Of a DNA stretch of 26,495 nucleotides, positions 1 to 18,342 are shown one piece after another (position 1 is the first letter of the stretch; each line of letters begins with the position of its first letter). The notes under the pieces were generated by a model. The model searched no databases, was not told the DNA's origin, and saw only the letters and a list, made by a program, of their open reading frames with translations. Position numbers and translations under genes: made by a program. Origin of the DNA: an uncultured Petrimonas sp. (lineage in GTDB: Bacteria; Bacteroidota; Bacteroidia; Bacteroidales; Dysgonomonadaceae); contig CAKTUP010000008.1 in the NCBI GenBank assembly GCA_934621705.1, positions 1 through 26,495 of the forward strand, given 5' to 3'.

Positions 1-242
1 TCAATGTCGTTTAGTTAAGCGCACATCGTGCGCCATATCACTAACTCCATGCGACTTGTCGCTTGGAGTGAAGAAAGTCCTGCATATCCCGCGCGAAGTG
101 CGGCACTATAATAGGCTCATTGTGCCGCCCCTACGGGCGGAGTTGGCGGTGCGGTTCTGCCACAGGCGGATAAATCGCCTGCGGTTAAAAAAATGTCGCC
201 CACAAGGGCGAAAGCTATCAATGCTTAACTAAACGGCATTGA
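1..242. repeat. Hairpin-rich element bounded by 20-bp inverted repeats (MITE-like)
   Basis: The first 20 bases (1-20) and bases 223-242 are inverted repeats of each other, matching at 19 of 20 positions. Between them lies a chain of hairpins: GCGCAC/GTGCGC (19-33), ACTCCA plus GCGAC against GTCGC plus TGGAGT (44-69), CCGCGC/GTGCGG with loop GAA (89-103), CCGCCC/GGGCGG (125-140), AGGCG/CGCCT (164-180) and CGCCC/GGGCG (197-210). No reading frame of note is present. This is the build of a non-autonomous inverted-repeat element or a composite palindromic repeat. Because the left inverted repeat starts at base 1, the true left boundary and any target duplication cannot be seen. The window may begin here because a repeat broke the assembly. 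Confidence 0.6.
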
Positions 243-251
243 ATCATAAAT

Positions 252-714
252 CTAAAATTTCAGTGTTTTGGGATCTCTACTGTTGTCCCAAAACGACAAA
301 ATATAGACGGTCTTTTCTTCTATCTTATAGTATAAAGAAAATCGTTTTAATATTATGATTCTTCGGATATCTTTGTATTGGGTGTTTGAACCGATATATG
401 GGTTTTGTTCCAATAAATCTTGAAAATGCTCTACTTCCTTGAAAATATCAATAGAATAGGAGTTAAGTACTAATCATAAATTAGTTATAGCTATTTTGCT
501 TTGCAAAATTTTTAGAGTCAGCCACTAATTACACAAATTTGCACGAATAAATCGGCTATGCCGATTTGAAATTCGTGTTCATTCGTGCCATTCGTGGCAA
601 ATAATAACTACAATTAATTTGTGTTCCATACTTAGACTTATTGTGGTTGACCCAAAATTCAAGAATTTGTGCTTGCTCTTCTATCGCTCTGTATTGCCAA
701 ATTATTTCAAACAT
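252..714 (-). pseudogene. ParE/RelE-family toxin gene split by a small inserted element
   Basis: The start codon is at 712-714 and the stop at 252-254. The first 27 codons (MFEIIWQYRAIEEQ... to NHNKS, about 634-714) match the usual N-terminus of ParE/RelE toxins. The frame is then lost in a 166-bp repeat element (466-631). From about 464 down to 252 the rest of the toxin resumes (NSYSIDIFKEVEHF, ENPYIG-like QNPYIG, LYYKIEEKTVYILSFWD). Removing the element plus one flanking TTA (169 bp) joins the halves in frame as ...NHNKSNSYSIDIF..., giving 97 residues, normal for this family of ribosome-independent gyrase poisons or mRNA interferases. The start overlaps the 3' end of the antitoxin gene by 13 bp, as is common in these operons. 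The broken gene should make no active toxin. The family call rests on motif recognition by eye. Confidence 0.8.
466..631. mobile_element. Small inverted-repeat element, copy 1 (166 bp, TTA target duplication)
   Basis: Non-coding element inside the toxin gene, flanked on both sides by TTA (463-465 and 632-634). Its ends are imperfect inverted repeats (467-495 against 603-631, 21 of 29 matching). Inside are two perfect hairpins: ATTTTGC/GCAAAAT (493-509) and AAATCGGC/GCCGATTT (549-567). Two further copies occur at 14489-14704 and 16867-17044 in the same orientation and also between TTA trinucleotides. The boundaries are fixed by the interrupted reading frame. It has no transposase, so movement would need one supplied in trans. 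A 3-bp TNA-type duplication is known for some IS5-group transposases, but the mobilising family here is a guess. Confidence 0.75.
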
Positions 715-929
715 ACTGAAAAAACTTTTCGAGCTTCGTCCCGTGATTTTGTATTTCCCTGTTTGGCGCTATTCAACCGTTCGGTTAATATTTCTTTCTG
801 GTAATTGGTAAGTTCTATTTCTGTAGTTTCATTTGGCGTGTCTATAAATTTTATTTTCATTTCTGCCAATAGACTTTTCAAAAGAAAATATTGATTTTCC
901 GAATTTGGATATATTATTAATGTATTCAT
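702..929 (-). CDS. Antitoxin of a ParE/RelE-type toxin-antitoxin operon
   Basis: A 75-residue protein beginning MNTLIIYPNSENQ and containing LLAEMKIKF, the pattern of the small Bacteroidetes antitoxins that precede ParE/RelE toxins (typically M-x-T-L-x-x-x-P then K-x-L-K-I-K-F). The frame stays open upstream to 1163, but that extension is translated G-rich repeat and promoter, so the ATG at 927-929 is chosen. A Bacteroides-type promoter lies about 60 bp upstream (990-1021). The toxin start codon (712-714) falls within the last codons of this gene. Its normal role is to bind and neutralise the toxin and to repress the operon. With the toxin gene split, it is now a solitary antitoxin. The last residues (SVCLK) look ordinary for an overlap-constrained end. 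Confidence 0.7.
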   Translation of the reverse strand: MNTLIIYPNSENQYFLLKSLLAEMKIKFIDTPNETTEIELTNYQKEILTERLNSAKQGNTKSRDEARKVFSVCLK

Positions 930-1425: not shown

Positions 1426-2733
1426 TTATTTATCATACGGCCATATTATAACACTAGGCATCAACTCAAAAGTATTATTAGGATTTCCATCCTCAGTTAA
1501 TTTTATCCAAGTTGGCGATTTCAAATTATCAGTAGTGACAGTAAATGTTCTTCCAGCGGATGTTCCAATAGGGTTAATAATATAATTAAAAGCGGCATTA
1601 TTATGATACCAAACTCCATCCCCTGCACCCGTTCCGGCAAATGTATATTTCACCTTGTCTTCACCAATAAGTTGATAATTGAAATGGAGCGCTCCCCCAT
1701 ACAGTCCAGTTCCATCGTAAGACGCAAAAGAGAAAGCATATTTCCCGTCTGAATGAGTTCCTATATATGCCCAGTACAATCTCTCACCTATTCGGTCCAA
1801 ACCATTTACTTTCGTGTAGTTCCAATAAGGTCTTCCAAAAGTACCGACTCCGCTGTATTTAAAATACCAGTTTCCCGACACAAGTTGTCTATTGACGGGA
1901 GGATATACGACTACAAGTTTTGCAGAGGCACCATTGGTTGGCTTAAAATATTCTAATTCGCCTTCCTTAGCAAATGTGAATTCTTCTACTGTTACATCAA
2001 AAATTGTAAGAGGTTTATACAATTTGTATCCGGTTGGAGTTTGTATATAAGGAGCTTTTACCGTTATTGCATTCTCATCCCCATCTGTATAAGTAAAACT
2101 CAAGCTCCGGAAAGAAACTGACACCGGTATCTTTTTGTCTCCTATTTGATATTCAAATTGGCGAAACGTCATTTCTTCCTCTGCATCATTGAGTTGAGTA
2201 ATATAGTCTGTCCATACTATGCCTTCTTTCATCGGGGTCATTACTATTTTATTGCTGGTTTTGCGGCCTTTAAGTATAACCGAGTCCGGTGTAGCTTTTA
2301 ATATTAAAAACTCAAAATCGCCTGCCATTCCTACCCCATTGTTGCCTGTAGGTGCATCTCTCTCTTCGGGTGTGGAAAAAATATGAAATATATCATTATA
2401 GACATCGAAAGTAAGAACAGGTCCCGCACTTTGCTTTAGTGAATATAAGCTCTCGGCTGTTTCCGAAGGGCTTGTTAATTCACTTGCCACCTTTACTTTA
2501 TCGGCCGTGAATAGAGCTAACACATTATATCCTCCGTACGTTTGTTGTGCCGAGGGATAAAACTGCATCAGCCATCCGTTTTTAGCACCAGTCAAAATGG
2601 CTTGGTCCGCTTTCATGGCTGCTTCAATTCTGTTTGACGCAGAATCTCCAAAAATGTCATTTTCTTCGGGTGTGCAAGAAAACAACACGACGGCGGCAAC
2701 CAAGATAAATATTCTATTTATTATTTTTTTCAT
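1426..2733 (-). CDS. DUF4302-family lipoprotein
   Basis: A 435-residue predicted lipoprotein. The N-terminus is a short lysine-containing signal peptide with a hydrophobic core ending in LFSC, so Cys20 is the likely lipidated residue. The motifs NGWLMQFYPSAQQTYGGYN (residues about 53-71) and SLYSLKQSAGPVLTFDVYND (split over residues about 96-115) are what I recall of DUF4302 proteins, which are repeatedly encoded beside SusC/SusD pairs. The function of the family is not known. An outer-membrane, surface-exposed accessory that helps bind or deliver substrate to the SusC transporter is an inference from position. It is the last gene of the operon, 41 bp after the metallohydrolase gene, and a terminator follows. 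No active-site motif is evident. Confidence 0.8.
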   Translation of the reverse strand: MKKIINRIFILVAAVVLFSCTPEENDIFGDSASNRIEAAMKADQAILTGAKNGWLMQFYPSAQQTYGGYNVLALFTADKVKVASELTSPSETAESLYSLKQSAGPVLTFDVYNDIFHIFSTPEERDAPTGNNGVGMAGDFEFLILKATPDSVILKGRKTSNKIVMTPMKEGIVWTDYITQLNDAEEEMTFRQFEYQIGDKKIPVSVSFRSLSFTYTDGDENAITVKAPYIQTPTGYKLYKPLTIFDVTVEEFTFAKEGELEYFKPTNGASAKLVVVYPPVNRQLVSGNWYFKYSGVGTFGRPYWNYTKVNGLDRIGERLYWAYIGTHSDGKYAFSFASYDGTGLYGGALHFNYQLIGEDKVKYTFAGTGAGDGVWYHNNAAFNYIINPIGTSAGRTFTVTTDNLKSPTWIKLTEDGNPNNTFELMPSVIIWPYDK

Positions 2734-2774
2734 ATCAATTGTTTTTAATTATTGTATTTAATGAAGTTCAACAG

Positions 2775-3677
2775 TTATTTTAAAGATTCCAGATCCAATG
2801 TATCAATTTCTGCTGACCGTCTTTGTACAATTTTTCTTAATTCGTCAATATTAATATCCCAGTTGGAGATTAAGTAATCTTTCACAAAAGCAAGTTTTTC
2901 TAATATTTTTTGTTTTCCTGCGGCGGCTGCTACCCTATTTTTGTGTGTGGGGTTTTCCAGTAAATTATTCCATTGTTGGTCAGAGCTGGTAACGTATCGC
3001 GAAATCATTTCCACAAAATCTTCTTGTGGTTCTGAACTGCCATAGGGAGATATGAATCCCATCCTTAAAGCCATTGTATCTGCCACATTAACCCAACTTC
3101 CGGATTGGTAGTCGGTTGGCGTTATCAAGTTGTAATCGGTTGAATAACTTTTTATTTGATGCAGAATATGGGCAAATTCGTGGTGCATTGTATTAAAATA
3201 CCAATAATTCAGGTAATCTAAGTCAGGATTATCCACATCAATGCCGTTCACATTATATAGTGTTACTTTCAATCCGCCTTCGGCTGTGCCCAACACCACA
3301 CTGCCAGCACCTGTGAACGCTCTGGAGCCTATCAGCTGAAATACTCTAGGCCCGTGTTTTTGCAAGAATGATTTACCCAATAATTCATCGTAAGCATCCA
3401 CCCACAAGTGTTTAATTAATTTCGATAAGGCAACAGACTTCTCATAACTTGCAGGTGCATGATTATACCTAAAGTCTGTTTCTTTTTCATCAAATCTGTA
3501 TTTAAACTGTATGTTGTAAGGAACTGTATAGTTGTTATACAACCAAGTGTCGAACTCATTGCTAACCCCGATTACTTCATCTTTAAAAATGCTTTCAGCG
3601 TCTAACTGCTCGTCGGCACACGACCAAAACATTGCAGATGCAATGAGTAAAGATAGTATAAATTTTATATTTTTCAT
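2775..3677 (-). CDS. SusD-linked zinc metallohydrolase lipoprotein (HExxH)
   Basis: A 300-residue lipoprotein with a signal peptide ending in FWSC (Cys20) and a zinc-peptidase motif HEFAH at residues 166-170 inside MHHEFAHILHQ. Glu223 in the segment EDFVEMIS is a candidate third metal ligand. This fits the Bacteroidetes family named substrate import-associated zinc metallohydrolase lipoprotein, found next to TonB-dependent receptor and SusD genes. The open frame extends upstream to 3779, but that would overlap the end of susD by 74 bp and bury the signal peptide, so the ATG at 3675-3677 (28 bp after susD) is preferred. Likely role: cleaving a peptide or other bound substrate at the cell surface before import. 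The substrate cannot be told from sequence. Confidence 0.85.
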   Translation of the reverse strand: MKNIKFILSLLIASAMFWSCADEQLDAESIFKDEVIGVSNEFDTWLYNNYTVPYNIQFKYRFDEKETDFRYNHAPASYEKSVALSKLIKHLWVDAYDELLGKSFLQKHGPRVFQLIGSRAFTGAGSVVLGTAEGGLKVTLYNVNGIDVDNPDLDYLNYWYFNTMHHEFAHILHQIKSYSTDYNLITPTDYQSGSWVNVADTMALRMGFISPYGSSEPQEDFVEMISRYVTSSDQQWNNLLENPTHKNRVAAAAGKQKILEKLAFVKDYLISNWDINIDELRKIVQRRSAEIDTLDLESLK

Positions 3678-3705
3678 ATCGTTATTTTTTATTACCATAC
3701 GTTTT

Positions 3706-5277
3706 TTACTTTCTCGGATTTGCTTGTAACCCGGCTTCAATAACATCTTGGGGAAGCTGTACAGCCCGTCTGGGATCATCTTTTAGCAACATGTCGGCAG
3801 CTTGCCCTTCTCTGTTGTGTGATATTTCTATGCCATAGCGTTTCAGGTCTGACCAACGCAAGCCATCATGCGCAGTTTCTATGCGGCGAAGGTGAAGTAT
3901 GCATTGTATCAGGTTTTCTTGTGCGCCTTGTGCTATGGTAAATCCTTGCGGATTAATTACCTTCTTGATGCTGCGGTCTTCGTCTCTAGTAACCTCAATA
4001 GGCATATACTGCAGGTTGTTGTAAAAATTCACAATTTGTTCCTGCGTATATACAGGCACCGATGGGTGTCCATTGGCTTGTATCCAAGTGTTAATATCAG
4101 CTACCCCTTCGGTTAATTTATTCTGTAAAATGTTAGCCTCGGCACGAACGAGCAATGTTTCACCTGCCGTAAATGCTACAGTTACATGATGTAAGAATCC
4201 AATCCCGGCCACTTTGTCAGTATATTCAAAATAACCAATTAATTTTGGAAGTGAATATTTTTGAACATAGCCCCACATAGCGGCTGCGGGATACAAGTTA
4301 GATCTTGAAACTCCCCAAATACCTGGAGCTCGCCACGATTCAAAATTTATTATCGGCAAAGCCATTCCGTATCTTTGATAGATACCGTAAGGTCCCAATA
4401 TATAAGGTGCAGCAGAGGAAGTAGGCATGATGAGATAATTAGCCGGGTCACTGGCTGAAATATAAGCATCAGACCGGGCTTGCACGTTCGATGCCATTGA
4501 AAACAAATTTTCCCATTTTGTAAGCGATTTTTCGGGGAAATCGCCTAAGGCAACCGTAGCATACTTCACGGCTTTGTCAAACTTCAAGTAATAGAGATTG
4601 AAGCGCGCGGCAAAGGCATTGGCTGCTTTTTTGTTAAAATGGTATTTGGGAACTTTATAGATTTCGTCATTAATCAACGGTAACCCTGCTTCAATATCTG
4701 CATTAATATTTTCATACAGCTCTGCCATTGTTCCTCTCACGTATTCTACTTTTACTTTCGTTTCAGGCTCGCTGGAATAGGGTAATCCTAAATCGGTTGT
4801 TGCAGTTTCAGGATTGTATCGCACACAAAATAAATTGGCTAATGCAAAATGTGCATAGGCGCGAGCTATCAAAGCTTCTCCTTTTTGAGCCTGTAAATTT
4901 TGTGGATTACCCATTTCTTCAATAGCCTCTAATGCTTGATTTGCTGCGGCTATTGCGCCGTAATGAGCATCCCAAATAGATTTGGGTGAGTCATTTTCCG
5001 TAGAAGTAATGTCTTTCCAAAGATAGCCATACTCTTGCGCCTCGCTATATCTTGATCCTGTGTAGGCTATGCCATTATCCATTGCATTGTCGGAAGACAT
5101 TTCTGCTATGACTACTCCATTATTGGTAGGATAAGCATCCACTAACAACGAGGTTATTTTTTCTACCGAGTTAATCTCCGCTCTGTTATCAGGCATCGTG
5201 TCCAAAAATTTCTCACAGGATACTGCAAAGAAACCAACAAGTAGTAGCAAAAATATTATAATATTATTTTTTTTCAT
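3706..5277 (-). CDS. SusD/RagB-family substrate-binding lipoprotein (operon 1)
   Basis: A 523-residue lipoprotein; the signal peptide ends FFAVSC with Cys21 lipidated, followed by EKFLDTMPDN, typical of SusD N-termini. The helical repeat region includes KGEALIARAYAHFALANLFCV (a TPR-like SusD hallmark, residues about 131-151). The C-terminal part has LHLRRIETAHDGLRWSDLKRYG, corresponding to the usual RxxEFxxEGxRxxDLxR block. It would cap the SusC channel of the same operon and bind the imported polymer or peptide at the cell surface. It lies 27 bp after susC and 28 bp before the metallohydrolase gene, so the four genes are almost certainly co-transcribed. The pairing with a peptidase-like protein suggests a peptide or glycopeptide ligand, but that is inference. 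Confidence 0.92.
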   Translation of the reverse strand: MKKNNIIIFLLLLVGFFAVSCEKFLDTMPDNRAEINSVEKITSLLVDAYPTNNGVVIAEMSSDNAMDNGIAYTGSRYSEAQEYGYLWKDITSTENDSPKSIWDAHYGAIAAANQALEAIEEMGNPQNLQAQKGEALIARAYAHFALANLFCVRYNPETATTDLGLPYSSEPETKVKVEYVRGTMAELYENINADIEAGLPLINDEIYKVPKYHFNKKAANAFAARFNLYYLKFDKAVKYATVALGDFPEKSLTKWENLFSMASNVQARSDAYISASDPANYLIMPTSSAAPYILGPYGIYQRYGMALPIINFESWRAPGIWGVSRSNLYPAAAMWGYVQKYSLPKLIGYFEYTDKVAGIGFLHHVTVAFTAGETLLVRAEANILQNKLTEGVADINTWIQANGHPSVPVYTQEQIVNFYNNLQYMPIEVTRDEDRSIKKVINPQGFTIAQGAQENLIQCILHLRRIETAHDGLRWSDLKRYGIEISHNREGQAADMLLKDDPRRAVQLPQDVIEAGLQANPRK

Positions 5278-5304
5278 AATTGTTCCTTATTATATTCTAA
5301 TTGT

Positions 5305-8300
5305 TTATAATCCAAATCTCAGTGTCAACGTATATTGTTTTGGTACCGGAGCTGCCACCCCCCCTGTATTGAAAAATTCGGGGTCTTGTCCGTTTAATTT
5401 ACTGTCGGCATATATCAGAAATAAATTTGTTGCTTGTAGTTTTAACGATAAATCGCTTATTTTCAAAGATGATATCATTGATTTTGGGAAATCGTAAGAC
5501 AATGAAATTTCTTTCATTCTGATAAAATCTCCCTTAGCTACGCGAGCTGTCGAAAAATTATAAGCATTGTAGGCACGGTTAAGCCTAGCGTCATTATTAT
5601 TTAATCTGCGATCTGCAATTACCGGTATATCGGTCAATTTTTCATCGCCCGGTATTACCCACCTGTTTTTGTACTCTTTTGGCATAGCATTCAAATCAGA
5701 ATATCGATTATTAAATATGGGATCAAGCCTTATTACATTTCCAAAAGAATATGTCATGAAAACATTTAATCTGAAGTTTTTGTAAGTAAAGATATTTCCA
5801 AAACTACCGGTAATGGTTGGATCGGTTGGCCCTTCATAAACTAAATGATCTTTATTGGTTCTGTTTTGAAAATCAATATCCGAAATGGTTGTTTCTCCTT
5901 TCTCATTAATAAAAGTGGGAAGCCCTTCTTCGGTAAGACCTTGAAAATCCATAGAGAATAATGAACGAACGGGATATCCTTTCATAGTAAAGCCTGTTCC
6001 GGTAATCATGTCGATGACACGTGTATTAGCTTCCAGTTCCGTAACTTCGTTTTTGGCATTGGAGAAAATAAAGTCTGTATTCCATTTAAAATCCCGAGAA
6101 ACAACATTTCGGGTTGACAATGTTAATTCAACGCCATGCGATTTCATGGAAGCAACGTTAGCCAATTTTGTAATTTGTCCGCCTATACCCATTGTGTTGA
6201 TCATTCCAATGAGGTCATAATTGTTTCGGGTGTACCAATCGGCAGCCACGTTGATTCTATTGTCGATAAAACCTACTTCTAAACCGATGTTTAACTCGTG
6301 CTTCTTCTCATAAGTTAATTCGCTATTCTCAAGATCTAAAATTCGAAGACCAGATTCTTTTACGCTGGTGAACGGGCGCCAAGGATTATAACTGCCAATT
6401 ACAACGCGAGAGTTAGTAACAGATGCAGGTCCTCGGTCGGCAGTTAATGAATAAGATGTTCTTAGCGTGAAGTTAGATAGCGTAGGCCTTAAGTTTTCAA
6501 AGAAACTTTCGTTATGAGCGTTCCAAGCTCCAGAAACGTTCCATGTGGGTAACCAACGCGCCGCACGACTTTTACCTAACTTATTCGACCCTTCATACCT
6601 TACTGTTCCGTTTACGGTATATCTTCCTTGGTAAGAGTAGGTGCCGGTGCTAAAGAATGAAACTTGCCTTCCACGTGTTTCGCCAATACCATAGTACTGG
6701 GCATTTTCCTCACTAATCTGTTTGAAGTATCTGTAATCAAAAGCAGGCAACATACCCATTTCATATTGCATAGCAATTCCATCAAATCTGGTACTTTTCC
6801 GGTTAACAGAGTTTACCTCCATCCCTCCGAAAAGATTTACAATATGGTCGTCGTGATACACATCGTTGTAATTTAATGTGCCACGGAAATCGTAGCCGTT
6901 CATCGAGAACTTTCTTTCGTTATAGAACCCACCATAAGGAAGTACGGTAATCGGCAACGAGTTGGGATCATCGGGGTCTGTGTAGAGCCAAGGGTTTGCA
7001 TCGCGCATAGTAGCATCGTCCATTGCTCTAAAAGCCATTGCTTGGTTTGAATAATCCTTTATGGAGTGTCCTTGCGTAGTAGATGAATATTTATAAGCAA
7101 ACAAAGCCGAAGCTTCGAGTTTTCTTATCGGTTTCCATTTCATTTCACCTTGGAATCTTAAATCAACAACATCTAAATCAAGAAAATTATTATTTAGTTC
7201 CGTCAATATATTGAAAGGAGCATAGTTGCGTACATAATTCATTTCAGGATCCAATGTCCGCGATGTGTTTAAGGCATAAGAGTATGGATTGATGTCAAAA
7301 TCACGTTTCACCTGACCGCTTACCACATCAACTTCCTGGCTCAATGTTCCCGGCGCTTTTTGTTTACGGTATGAGCCATTTCCTATTAGATTTAAAGAAA
7401 GGTTATCAAAAATACGATATAAAGCATTTACATTGGTTGTATAACGATTTACCGAACTTTGTTTTGACCATCCGGGATCAGACATTACACTTAGTGAAGT
7501 ATAGTAAGAAGCTTTTTCGGTTCCTGTTGACATGCTGATAGCATGGTTTTGAGAAAGGCTGTTGTTAAACAACAAATTGAACCAATCTGTATTTCTGTAT
7601 TCGGCTTCTCTCAAATATGCATTCCGAGCTTCTAACGTATTTGGAAGACCGTATGCACCATTTGTTTCATTAAAACTATTGATTAAATGATACATTTTTC
7701 CATATACACCGCTATTGGACGCTCTATAAGTTTCTGCCAAATTAAGATAGCCGTTTGCCTCCAATTCTTTGTAAACGCCCATTTGTTCCTGAGAGTTCAT
7801 AATGTTGAAATTCCGGTAACTGGGTTTTAAACGCAGTGAATATTCTCCGGTATACGAAATTTTATTTGTACCGGCTTTTCCTTTTTTAGTAGTCACTACA
7901 ATAACGCCTGCCATAGCTCTTGCTCCATAAATAGAAGTAGCAGAGCCGTCTTTTAATATCTGAAAACTTTCGATATCATCGGCATTTAATCCGGCAATGG
8001 CAGAACTTATCAATGTAACGGCATCTCCCGATGAAAGATCATCGGAGCTAACCTCCGTAACATCCTCCATTATGACACCATCAACTACCCACAACGGCTT
8101 TGAACTTCCATATATGGAAGTTGCACCGCGAACGCGAATTTTCGGCGCTGTACCAAATGTTCCCGAAACGTTTTGAACAGATACTCCGGCAGCACGTCCT
8201 TCAAGTGCACGGCTGATTTCAGGGATACCATCCAATCTAACCTCTTCGGCTCCTAATCTGTTTGTGGCACCCGTAAACAGGCGTTTATCCATTTGCTGCA

Positions 8301-8616
8301 TCCCTGTTACCACTACTTCTTGCAGCATTTCGCTGTCAGATACAAGAGTAATGTTCAAACTTGGCCTTACTGCAACTTCTTGAGTTACCATGCCTACATA
8401 CGAAATAACCAGTGTTCCGTTGGCAGGCGCCGTTAAATTAAATTGGCCATCAATATCGGTAACAGTTCCCTGCGATGTTCCCCTGACTTGGATGGTTGCT
8501 CCGATAACCGGTTCTCCAAACTCATCCACAACGGTTCCTCTTACCTGAGTTTGAGCAGTAGCTAGCCCTATTCCGATAATGAGCAGGGCCAAAAACATAG
8601 TTAGTTTTCTTTTCAT
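5305..8616 (-). CDS. SusC/RagA-family TonB-dependent outer-membrane transporter (operon 1)
   Basis: An 1103-residue TonB-dependent transporter. The order is a signal peptide (to about residue 22, LATAQ), a carboxypeptidase-D-regulatory-like domain (about 24-98, [20 protein letters not shown]), a plug domain, then a long beta-barrel ending in LTLRFGL. The SusC signature is present as [33 protein letters not shown] (split here only for naming; residues about 213-245). It takes up the ligand delivered by the paired SusD using energy from TonB-ExbBD. The frame opens at 8640, but the ATG at 8614-8616 (MKRKL) starts the signal peptide and is shared in exact context with the second susC, so it is chosen. 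No sigma/anti-sigma or hybrid sensor gene lies nearby. Confidence 0.93.
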   Translation of the reverse strand: [1103 protein letters not shown]

Positions 8617-8642
8617 AAACTCTACTTTTAAATTAAACAATT
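8603..8642 (-). repeat. 40-bp start-codon block identical in both susC genes (copy 1)
   Basis: These 40 bases, spanning 26 bp of leader, the ATG and the first codons of susC-1, are identical to 13972-14011 at the start of susC-2. Identity covers the AAGTAGAGTTT stretch just before the ATG. Conserved translation-initiation context or recent duplication/conversion are the two explanations. Confidence 0.85.
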
Positions 8643-14488: not shown

Positions 14489-14704
14489 AGTACCAATTAA
14501 AAATTACTTTGTGTTATTTTGCTTTGCAAAATTTTTATATACAGCCACCGCTCGAACTTGTTCGCTCGCCTGCCTGTCGGCAGACAGGTTTTGACGAGAA
14601 ATGGCACCAATTTGCACAAATACATCACAAAGCTGATTTAATATTCGTGTTTATTTAGTGTCATTCGTGGCTAAAAATAACTATAACTAATTTGTGTCTC
14701 ATAC
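14489..14704. mobile_element. Small inverted-repeat element, copy 2 (216 bp)
   Basis: Begins AGTACCAATT and ends CTCATAC, flanked by TTA on both sides (14486-14488 and 14705-14707), as in the other two copies. The ends pair imperfectly (19 of 29). It has the same ATTTTGC/GCAAAAT hairpin but carries an extra central segment with the hairpin CCTGTC-GGCA-GACAGG (14573-14588) in place of the AATCGGC/GCCGATT hairpin, so it is longer and more diverged than copies 1 and 3. It lies in non-coding DNA between uptake operon 2 and the FKBP genes. No protein is encoded. Confidence 0.65.
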
Positions 14705-14722
14705 TTAAATGATAATCTATGT

Positions 14723-16750: not shown

Positions 16751-16808
16751 CAAAAATACAATATTAATGTGAAATAATTTTGAATTTAAGGATAAAAAAC
16801 TATATTTG
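16751..16808. promoter_or_regulatory. Duplicated divergent promoter block, copy A
   Basis: Bases 16752-16808 are identical, 57 of 57, to 17391-17447. The block holds a plus-strand TTTG...18 bp...TATATTTG promoter and, at its left edge, a minus-strand TATTTTTG box (16758-16751) that faces the FKBP gene 29 bp away. The plus-strand promoter in this copy faces only non-coding DNA and the remnant region. The minus-strand box is intact only in this copy because the C at 16751 lies just outside the repeat. Confidence 0.6.
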
Positions 16809-16866
16809 TTGAGTTTATGGTAAATAGCGAAGGGCGAAGGGCAGAGAGCAAAGAACAAACAATTTT

Positions 16867-17044
16867 AAGTACAAGACAAGAATTACAATGCTATTTTGCT
16901 TTGCAAAATTTGCTTATCAAGCCACTGATTGCACAAATTAGCACGAATCAATCGGCTATGCCGATTTAAAATTCGTGTTCATTCGAGTCATTCGTGGCTA
17001 ATATCCCGATAATTATCGGGACTAAATTAATTTGTGTTCCATAC
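16867..17044. mobile_element. Small inverted-repeat element, copy 3 (178 bp)
   Basis: Begins AGTACAAGAC and ends TTCCATAC, flanked by TTA (16864-16866 and 17045-17047). The interior matches copy 1 closely, including ATTTTGC/GCAAAAT and the ATCGGC/GCCGAT hairpin. It has an extra 16-bp perfect palindrome CCCGATAATTATCGGG (about 17002-17019 region) near the right end. The flanks on each side resemble two halves of the 57-bp divergent promoter block, so it seems to have inserted at the TTA of a third, degenerate copy of that block. Confidence 0.7.
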
Positions 17045-17363
17045 TTAATGTGAAATAATTCTTGTTTTGACGATAAAAAACTATCCCTAGCCAATTTATC
17101 TGCTTTGTTTCGTAGCCTTTTCCATCCGAAGCAGTTGTTCGGAATTTCCGAACAACTGATTCTTCAATCAATTCTCCTTCTTCAAAAATGTGTTTGATAT
17201 GCTCACTGATATTGGATTTCGATGTTTGAAACAGCTCAATCATAGCCTGTTGGGTTAACCAAACAGTTTCATCTTTCAATCTTACATCAATTCGTAATTT
17301 TCCGTCTTCTGATTGATATAGCAAAAAGTCGTCGTTTGATCTCGTTAAATCGGCATCCGTCAT
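17022..17363 (-). pseudogene. RhuM-family gene remnant (5' part only)
   Basis: The first 87 codons (17363 down to about 17103) match the N-terminus of RhuM/virulence-type proteins: YQSEDGKLRIDVRLKDETVW, LTQQAMIELFQTSKSNISEH, IFEEGELIEESVVRKFRTTA and SDGKGYETK. Intact relatives continue with YYNLDVIISVGYRVKS and run to about 330 residues. Here that is replaced by unrelated codons running through the degenerate promoter block and into the small element, where a stop occurs at 17022-17024. RhuM proteins have a DNA-binding-like N-terminal part and occur on mobile and accessory DNA, with unknown function. This copy is truncated and presumably non-functional. Confidence 0.75.
17045..17090. repeat. 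Degenerate third copy of the divergent promoter block (right half)
   Basis: TTAATGTGAAATAATT and GATAAAAAACTAT occur here in the same order as in the 57-bp blocks. The -7 box is lost (TATCCCTAG instead of TATATTTG). The matching left half (about 16850-16866, AACAAACAATTTTA against AAAATACAATATTA) lies on the other side of the small element. Confidence 0.5.
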
Positions 17364-17390
17364 AGTCGTTGTTTTTTATCATGAATAGGT

Positions 17391-17447
17391 AAAAATACAA
17401 TATTAATGTGAAATAATTTTGAATTTAAGGATAAAAAACTATATTTG
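17391..17447 (+). promoter_or_regulatory. Duplicated divergent promoter block, copy B, driving the sirtuin gene
   Basis: Exact 57-bp duplicate of 16752-16808. TTTG (17418-17421), 18 bp, TATATTTG (17440-17447) is a good Bacteroides promoter, with transcription expected near 17454 and the sirtuin ATG at 17490. Confidence 0.65.
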
Positions 17448-17489
17448 CGAAGATTAGTTGTCGGTTTACAGTTATCAATTTACAGAAAA

Positions 17490-18176: not shown

Positions 18177-18190
18177 GGGGCGATTGGGTG

Positions 18191-18293
18191 ACCGGGAGAC
18201 AAGAGACAAGAGACCGGGAGACAAGTGACAAGAGACCGGGAGACAAGTGACAAGAGACCGGGAGACAAGAGACAGGAGGCCTGGGGACAGGAG
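18191..18293. repeat. 22-bp minisatellite, four units plus a partial
   Basis: Units start at 18191, 18213, 18235 and 18257, each close to ACCGGGAGACAAGTGACAAG plus AG, with a degenerate fifth part to 18293. Differences are confined to AGAG/AGTG and the last unit. It begins 14 bp after the sirtuin stop codon. There are no spacers, so it is not a CRISPR array. Confidence 0.9.
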
Positions 18294-18342
18294 AAGAAAC
18301 TTGCAAATCGTAAATCGCAACTCGTAAATCCAAAATAATTTA

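What the first reader, a model, noticed from the sequence alone, without database searches (positions are those of the whole stretch)
252..714. A ParE-family toxin gene is split by a small element, and the frame is restored by its exact removal
Seen: an N-terminal toxin half (714 to about 634) and a C-terminal half (about 464 to 252) lie in different frames on the minus strand, separated by a repeat. Deleting 169 bp (element 466-631 plus one TTA) joins them in frame into 97 residues, a normal toxin length, reading ...NHNKSNSYSIDIF... across the join. Neither half is visible as a standard gene, so automated annotation would miss the toxin. This gives base-level boundaries and a target duplication for the element.
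Basis: partly seen in the sequence, partly recalled or inferred. Interest (0 to 1): 0.75.

Follow-up and report, generated by a model that had tools for sequence, protein, structure and literature searches.

The report
Toxin gene split by tiny transposon
In a Bacteroidales bacterium, a small self-poisoning (toxin) gene has been cut in two by a 167-base non-coding mobile element while its antidote gene stays whole; this is a clear but ordinary kind of gene inactivation.

Summary
On the minus strand a ParE/RelE-type toxin gene lies in two pieces in different frames: residues 1-26 (714-635) and the rest (463-252). The C-terminal piece alone passes Pfam's ParE_toxin cut-off. Each piece, aligned apart, matches the same two intact natural relatives without gaps (1-26 and 28-95/97), so nothing of the gene was lost. 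Just upstream, overlapping the toxin start by 13 nt, is an intact small antitoxin-like gene; relatives have a like layout. Between the pieces sits a non-coding 167-bp element with inverted-repeat ends, two more copies in the window and relatives in genomes of probably the same genus: a MITE. Correction: the duplicated target is TA, not TTA (uninterrupted counterparts of copy 3's site). No transposase partner was found. Best explanation: a MITE insertion disrupted the toxin of a type II toxin-antitoxin pair and left an orphan antitoxin. Both kinds of event are known; whether the element family is already named could not be checked (no ISfinder).

The parts
635..714 (-). N-terminal piece of the toxin gene (ATG at 714; residues 1-26)
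   Evidence: 14/26 identical to residues 1-26 of intact P0003, 0/2000 shuffles
252..463 (-). C-terminal piece of the toxin gene, to the stop at 252-254
   Evidence: PF05016 above cut-off; 43/68 identical to P0003 28-95
466..632 (.). inserted MITE-like element, copy 1 (167 bp, no ORF of 40 aa wholly inside, imperfect terminal inverted repeats beginning AGTA)
464..465 (.). TA target duplication, left copy
633..634 (.). TA target duplication, right copy
521..598 (.). inner palindromic module of the element (GCCAC... / ...GTGGC around a short hairpin); parts of it also found without the terminal repeats in other genomes
702..929 (-). intact antitoxin-like gene, 75 aa, overlapping the toxin start by 13 nt
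   Evidence: 95%-identical P0005, 7 sequences on 6 contigs
14489..14705 (.). element copy 2, intergenic, carrying about 50 bp of extra palindromic DNA
16868..17045 (.). element copy 3, intergenic, at a TA of a repeated promoter-region sequence upstream of the SIR2 gene

Best explanation
[quoted passage not shown] It shifts the frame, and the reading frame from the toxin's ATG ends at 556 inside the element (52-aa ORF), so only a truncated N-terminal fragment can be made. The upstream antitoxin gene is untouched and becomes an orphan antitoxin. Shown: the split gene, the intact relatives, the repeat family, its ends, the TA on both sides. Inferred: that the toxin was active before, that it is inactive now, that the insertion is fairly recent, and that a transposase acting in trans moved the element.
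For: Profile match of the C piece; two intact natural relatives with ungapped match of both pieces; plasmid relatives annotated 'type II toxin-antitoxin system RelE/ParE family toxin', 51% identity in one record and 39.6% in six, 7 of 72,556 records. Layout: of 20 relative loci examined, 18 gave a tblastn match and all 18 have an ORF of at least 45 aa ending within -60 to +40 nt of the toxin start, overlap 7-35 nt (best-scoring ORF per locus chosen; no chance control); 0 of 300 shuffles reach its score against the window's antitoxin in 7 of 18. In the reverse direction 5 of 7 antitoxin-like matches lie beside a toxin match. Element: 3 copies in the window; 9 matches in genome G051 to one of its own copies, itself included, several only end pieces; 7 two-ended copies of 164-221 bp with TA on both sides; folding z-score -8.2 as RNA, -6.3 as DNA. 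Copy 3: its right flank continues a promoter repeat that stands uninterrupted at two other places in the window and once in each of 7 other genomes; TA is at that place in the two window copies and in 5 of the 7.
Against: In 5 of the 18 loci the upstream ORF is no more like the window's antitoxin than 60 or more of 300 shuffles are. The antitoxin matches its families only below cut-off. No transposase with such ends was found (1 DDE_3 match in 1 of 7 genomes; 17 DDE_Tnp_1 matches in 5 of 7; none of the 18 loci, 1.7-3.8 kb each, carries the ends), but the window's own genome is not held. No empty site at this toxin locus was found. TA was part of the search pattern for the 4 copies from other genomes, so copies with other ends would be missed. 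In 2 of 7 genomes (G049, G051) the place of copy 3 reads AA, not TA, and its left flank agrees only over about seven bases. The DNA minimum-energy fold is not end to end; only the RNA fold is. Fold prediction of P0003 was poor and gave no significant structural match.
Confidence: 0.93

Rival explanations
1. The element is removed or bypassed at RNA or translation level (intron-like splicing, or ribosome hopping across the end-to-end hairpin), so a full toxin is still made.
For: The sense-strand RNA of the element folds end to end into one long hairpin, z -8.2; both pieces are still free of stops and conserved.
Against: No Rfam family, introns included, reaches its cut-off in the window; the two other window copies are intergenic; a long palindrome is expected of a MITE anyway; by eye the frames offer no matching take-off and landing codons (own inspection, not computed).
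Confidence: 0.03
2. Assembly artefact: an assembler joined two loci through the roughly 170-bp repeat.
For: The element is repeated, and repeats can mislead assemblies (general knowledge).
Against: Both flanks are pieces of one gene, in the right order, strand and register against intact relatives; a chance join would not give this.
Confidence: 0.02
3. The gene was already dead, and the element arrived afterwards.
For: No equally close intact toxin was found while the antitoxin has a 95%-identical relative on 6 contigs; orphan antitoxins are abundant in a Klebsiella survey (passages).
Against: Outside the insert neither piece has a stop, frameshift or gap against P0003/P0004.
Confidence: 0.08

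Closest known systems
MITEs that disrupt genes, e.g. the hupL MITE of Candidatus Thiomargarita nelsonii (PMC4853749; passages read)
   Same: short non-coding inverted-repeat element, multicopy, inside a coding gene, no parental IS identified
   Different: that one has 10-bp direct repeats and interrupts a hydrogenase gene; here a TA duplication and a toxin gene
PF05016 / RelE-ParE type II toxins
   Same: profile match, overlapping upstream antitoxin-like gene
   Different: gene is split and presumably dead; ParE (gyrase) versus RelE (RNase) activity cannot be told
Orphan antitoxins (Klebsiella survey, PMC7192599; passages read)
   Same: antitoxin gene left without a working toxin; discussed there as remnants or possible anti-addiction modules
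   Different: here the way the toxin was lost is visible to the base
IS630/Tc1-type elements with TA target duplication (general knowledge)
   Same: TA duplication
   Different: no such transposase linked to these ends here

Membership tests
MITE | short and non-coding | tested here: met
   167 bp; no ORF of 40 aa or more wholly inside it
MITE | terminal inverted repeats | tested here: met
   imperfect: the left end of copy 1, inverted, matches the 19-nt right-end pattern with 3 mismatches; RNA fold end to end, DNA fold not
MITE | target site duplication | tested here: met
   TA on both sides in 7 of 7 two-ended copies examined, TA being part of the search pattern for the 4 from other genomes; uninterrupted counterparts of copy 3's site
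MITE | several copies at unrelated places | tested here: met
   3 in the window; 9 matches in G051, the query itself included
MITE | ends shared with an autonomous transposon | tested here: inconclusive
   none found in 7 genomes for two transposase families; own genome not held
ParE/RelE toxin (PF05016) | profile match | tested here: met
   C piece 24.8 bits over 23; intact relative P0003 27.1 bits, profile 1-88 of 89; NCBIfam RelE_StbE below its cut-off for both; N piece alone no match
ParE/RelE toxin (PF05016) | RelE/ParE fold | tested here: inconclusive
   P0003 model: strand, two helices, four strands, but mean pLDDT 60.4 and 0 Foldseek matches at E<=0.001; best, a PrpT toxin entry, E 0.13
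Type II toxin-antitoxin operon | small antitoxin gene overlapping or abutting the toxin | tested here: met
   13-nt overlap in the window; 18 of 18 relatives with a tblastn match, of 20 loci
RelB/ParD antitoxin | profile match of the antitoxin | tested here: inconclusive
   NF050811 14.4 bits, cut-off 60; DUF2683 16.6 bits, cut-off 27
Type II toxin-antitoxin operon | toxicity and neutralisation | not testable with these tools
   needs expression

The most novel reading that the evidence does not exclude
The insertion is a reversible or conditional off-switch: the element either leaves precisely in part of the population, or its end-to-end RNA hairpin lets some ribosomes cross it, so that a cell line keeps a silent toxin with a standing antidote and can bring the pair back.
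Probability: 0.03. Interest if true: 0.75.

Novelty: new member of a known kind. Interest (0 to 1): 0.3.

Why it matters
It gives a base-level picture of how a toxin-antitoxin pair can become an orphan antitoxin, and it defines the borders and TA target of a small element family, seen here as two-ended copies in the window and in two held genomes (G051 and, with a different interior, G055; the end pattern was tried in 6 genomes). Counts of toxin-antitoxin systems that use whole ORFs would miss the toxin here.

Tried and rejected
TTA as target duplication: rejected, the third base is not shared in 3 of 7 copies. Rfam element: none. Element elsewhere: an exact 20-base core pattern gives 0 in viral contigs, the element 0 matches in plasmids. 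Relatives of P0003 or P0005 in viral contigs: none; P0003 in phages: none. Autonomous partner through PF13358 and PF01609: none with the ends. Wider presence of the element by DNA search: 2 of 8, 3 of 101 family genomes, 1 of 393 order genomes, 3 of 10 genus genomes (the same three as); except in G051 these cover only the inner module, and none of their loci has the terminal pattern, so I do not count them as element copies. The first look scored only 8 or 2 candidates per genome. In G055 an element with like ends and a different interior was found by pattern. Empty site of copy 2: alignment too diverged to use. Empty site of the toxin locus: the DUF4302 neighbour is found in 2 of 10 genus genomes, 42% and 31% identical; I saw no matching locus. 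Fold prediction: too weak to use. Solved structures by sequence: none. A RhuM-like reading of 17106-17363, recalled from the letters: no Pfam match, dropped. Literature: four searches of which I saw 3 of 3, 15 of 187, 4 of 4 and 2 of 2 listings; none of those titles or abstract starts is about a MITE in a Bacteroidales toxin gene. Passages of three papers were read, no whole paper.

Full report
What is there. The window is from a Bacteroidales bacterium, probably of the family Dysgonomonadaceae. The nearest named record is a Proteiniphilum MAG at 81%, then a 'Dysgonamonadaceae' MAG at 80%. The family name is inferred from these titles. The window's own genome is not held.

The split toxin gene. 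On the minus strand an ORF starts at 714 and its first 26 codons end at the element; a 70-residue frame without a start runs from 464 to the stop at 252. The second passes the ParE_toxin cut-off of Pfam alone. A search with this piece alone returned one protein, P0003, 101 aa, intact; the search reaches only proteins that share short words with the query. P0003 in turn returned P0004. Aligned apart, the two pieces cover residues 1-26 and 28-95 (P0003) or 28-97 (P0004) without gaps, with 14/26, 13/26, 43/68 and 38/70 identities, and no shuffle of 2000 reaches any of the four scores. The gene is therefore interrupted, not otherwise degraded. P0003 itself matches PF05016 over 1-88 of 89 profile positions. 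Seven plasmid records (six Riemerella, one Empedobacter) carry relatives annotated as RelE/ParE family toxin.

The antitoxin. A 75-residue frame (929-702) overlaps the toxin start by 13 nt. It matches DUF2683 and RelB/ParD only below their cut-offs. Its nearest relative, P0005, is 95% identical, 7 sequences on 6 contigs. P0003 has matches in 18 of 101 family genomes. Of 20 loci fetched there, 18 gave a tblastn match and all 18 have a small ORF ending near or over the toxin start (criteria: at least 45 aa, end within -60 to +40 nt; best-scoring one kept; no chance control). In 7 of 18 no shuffle of 300 reaches its score against the window's antitoxin; in 5 of 18 it is no better than 60 or more of the shuffles. 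In G055 it has 75 residues and the same 13-nt overlap. The search with the antitoxin gave 7 matches in 6 of 101 genomes, 5 of the 7 beside toxin matches. That P0005 exists on several contigs while no equally close intact toxin was found hints that the interrupted state may be common in its population, or that contigs break at the repeat; I cannot tell which.

The element. Three copies in the window, same orientation, 171, 221 and 182 bp including both TAs. Copy 2 has about 50 bp of extra palindromic DNA, copy 3 shorter extra pieces. Each begins TA-AGTAC and ends CATACT-TA. In G051, nine matches to one of its own copies were found, that copy included, several being end pieces of 21-34 bases. 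Three two-ended copies there and one in G055 have like ends. Base outside the left TA: T in copies 1-3 and in G055; G, A and A in the three of G051. Hence the duplicated target is TA, and the T before the right TA belongs to the element. For the four copies from other genomes I searched by patterns that contain the TA, so this tests the third base, not the TA. Support for the TA itself comes from copy 3: its right flank (TA-ATGTGAAATAAT) continues a promoter-region repeat that occurs uninterrupted at two other places in the window (16765 and 17404) and once in each of seven other genomes; TA stands at that place in both window copies and in five of the seven, AA in G049 and G051. The left flank of copy 3 agrees only over about seven bases.

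The interior is an imperfect palindrome of its own around a small hairpin; parts of it also occur, without the terminal pattern, in G345, G055, G056, G008 and G003. Copy 1 folds end to end as RNA of the toxin's sense strand, z -8.2; as DNA of the other strand z is -6.3 but the minimum-energy fold is not end to end; copy 3 as DNA -4.8.

How it works (inference). A transposase acting in trans on the AGTA-type ends most likely inserted the element at a TA in the toxin gene. Translation now runs from the ATG into the element and stops at 556 (52 aa), so the C-terminal part, which holds most of the profile, is not made in frame. The antitoxin remains. Orphan antitoxins have been discussed as remnants or anti-addiction modules (PMC7192599, passages). 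I found no transposase with these ends in seven genomes, so the partner stays unknown.

Known or new. Gene disruption by MITEs is described in bacteria (PMC4853749, passages), MITEs together with toxin-antitoxin systems on Pseudomonas plasmids (PMC6354349, passages), orphan antitoxins in Klebsiella. The element family may be undescribed, but I had no ISfinder to check; it is a new member of a known kind.

Noticed in passing
window 1-242: A second small inverted-repeat element: 20-nt arms at 1-20 and 223-242, 95% complementary, ending 9 bp before the toxin's stop codon; the window begins exactly at its arm. No other match in the loci held.
   Followed up: partly
window 16752-17456: The promoter-region sequence between the FKBP and SIR2 genes is present three times (16765, 17046, 17404), with element copy 3 among the extra DNA; six genus genomes and L001 have it once. 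In G050 it lies about 630 bp from the FKBP side.
   Followed up: partly
window 14550-14597: Element copy 2 carries an inserted palindrome (CCTGCCTGTCGGCAGACAGG), a repeat inside a repeat.
   Followed up: no
L117, L119, L087: In G051 some element ends are joined to a GGATATTCAT end rather than the usual left end, perhaps relics or a second type of terminus.
   Followed up: no
window 18190-18299: 22-bp tandem repeat between the SIR2 and mutS genes.
   Followed up: no
window 1426-8640: SusC/SusD-like pair with a Peptidase_Mx1 lipoprotein and a DUF4302 protein beside the toxin locus.
   Followed up: no
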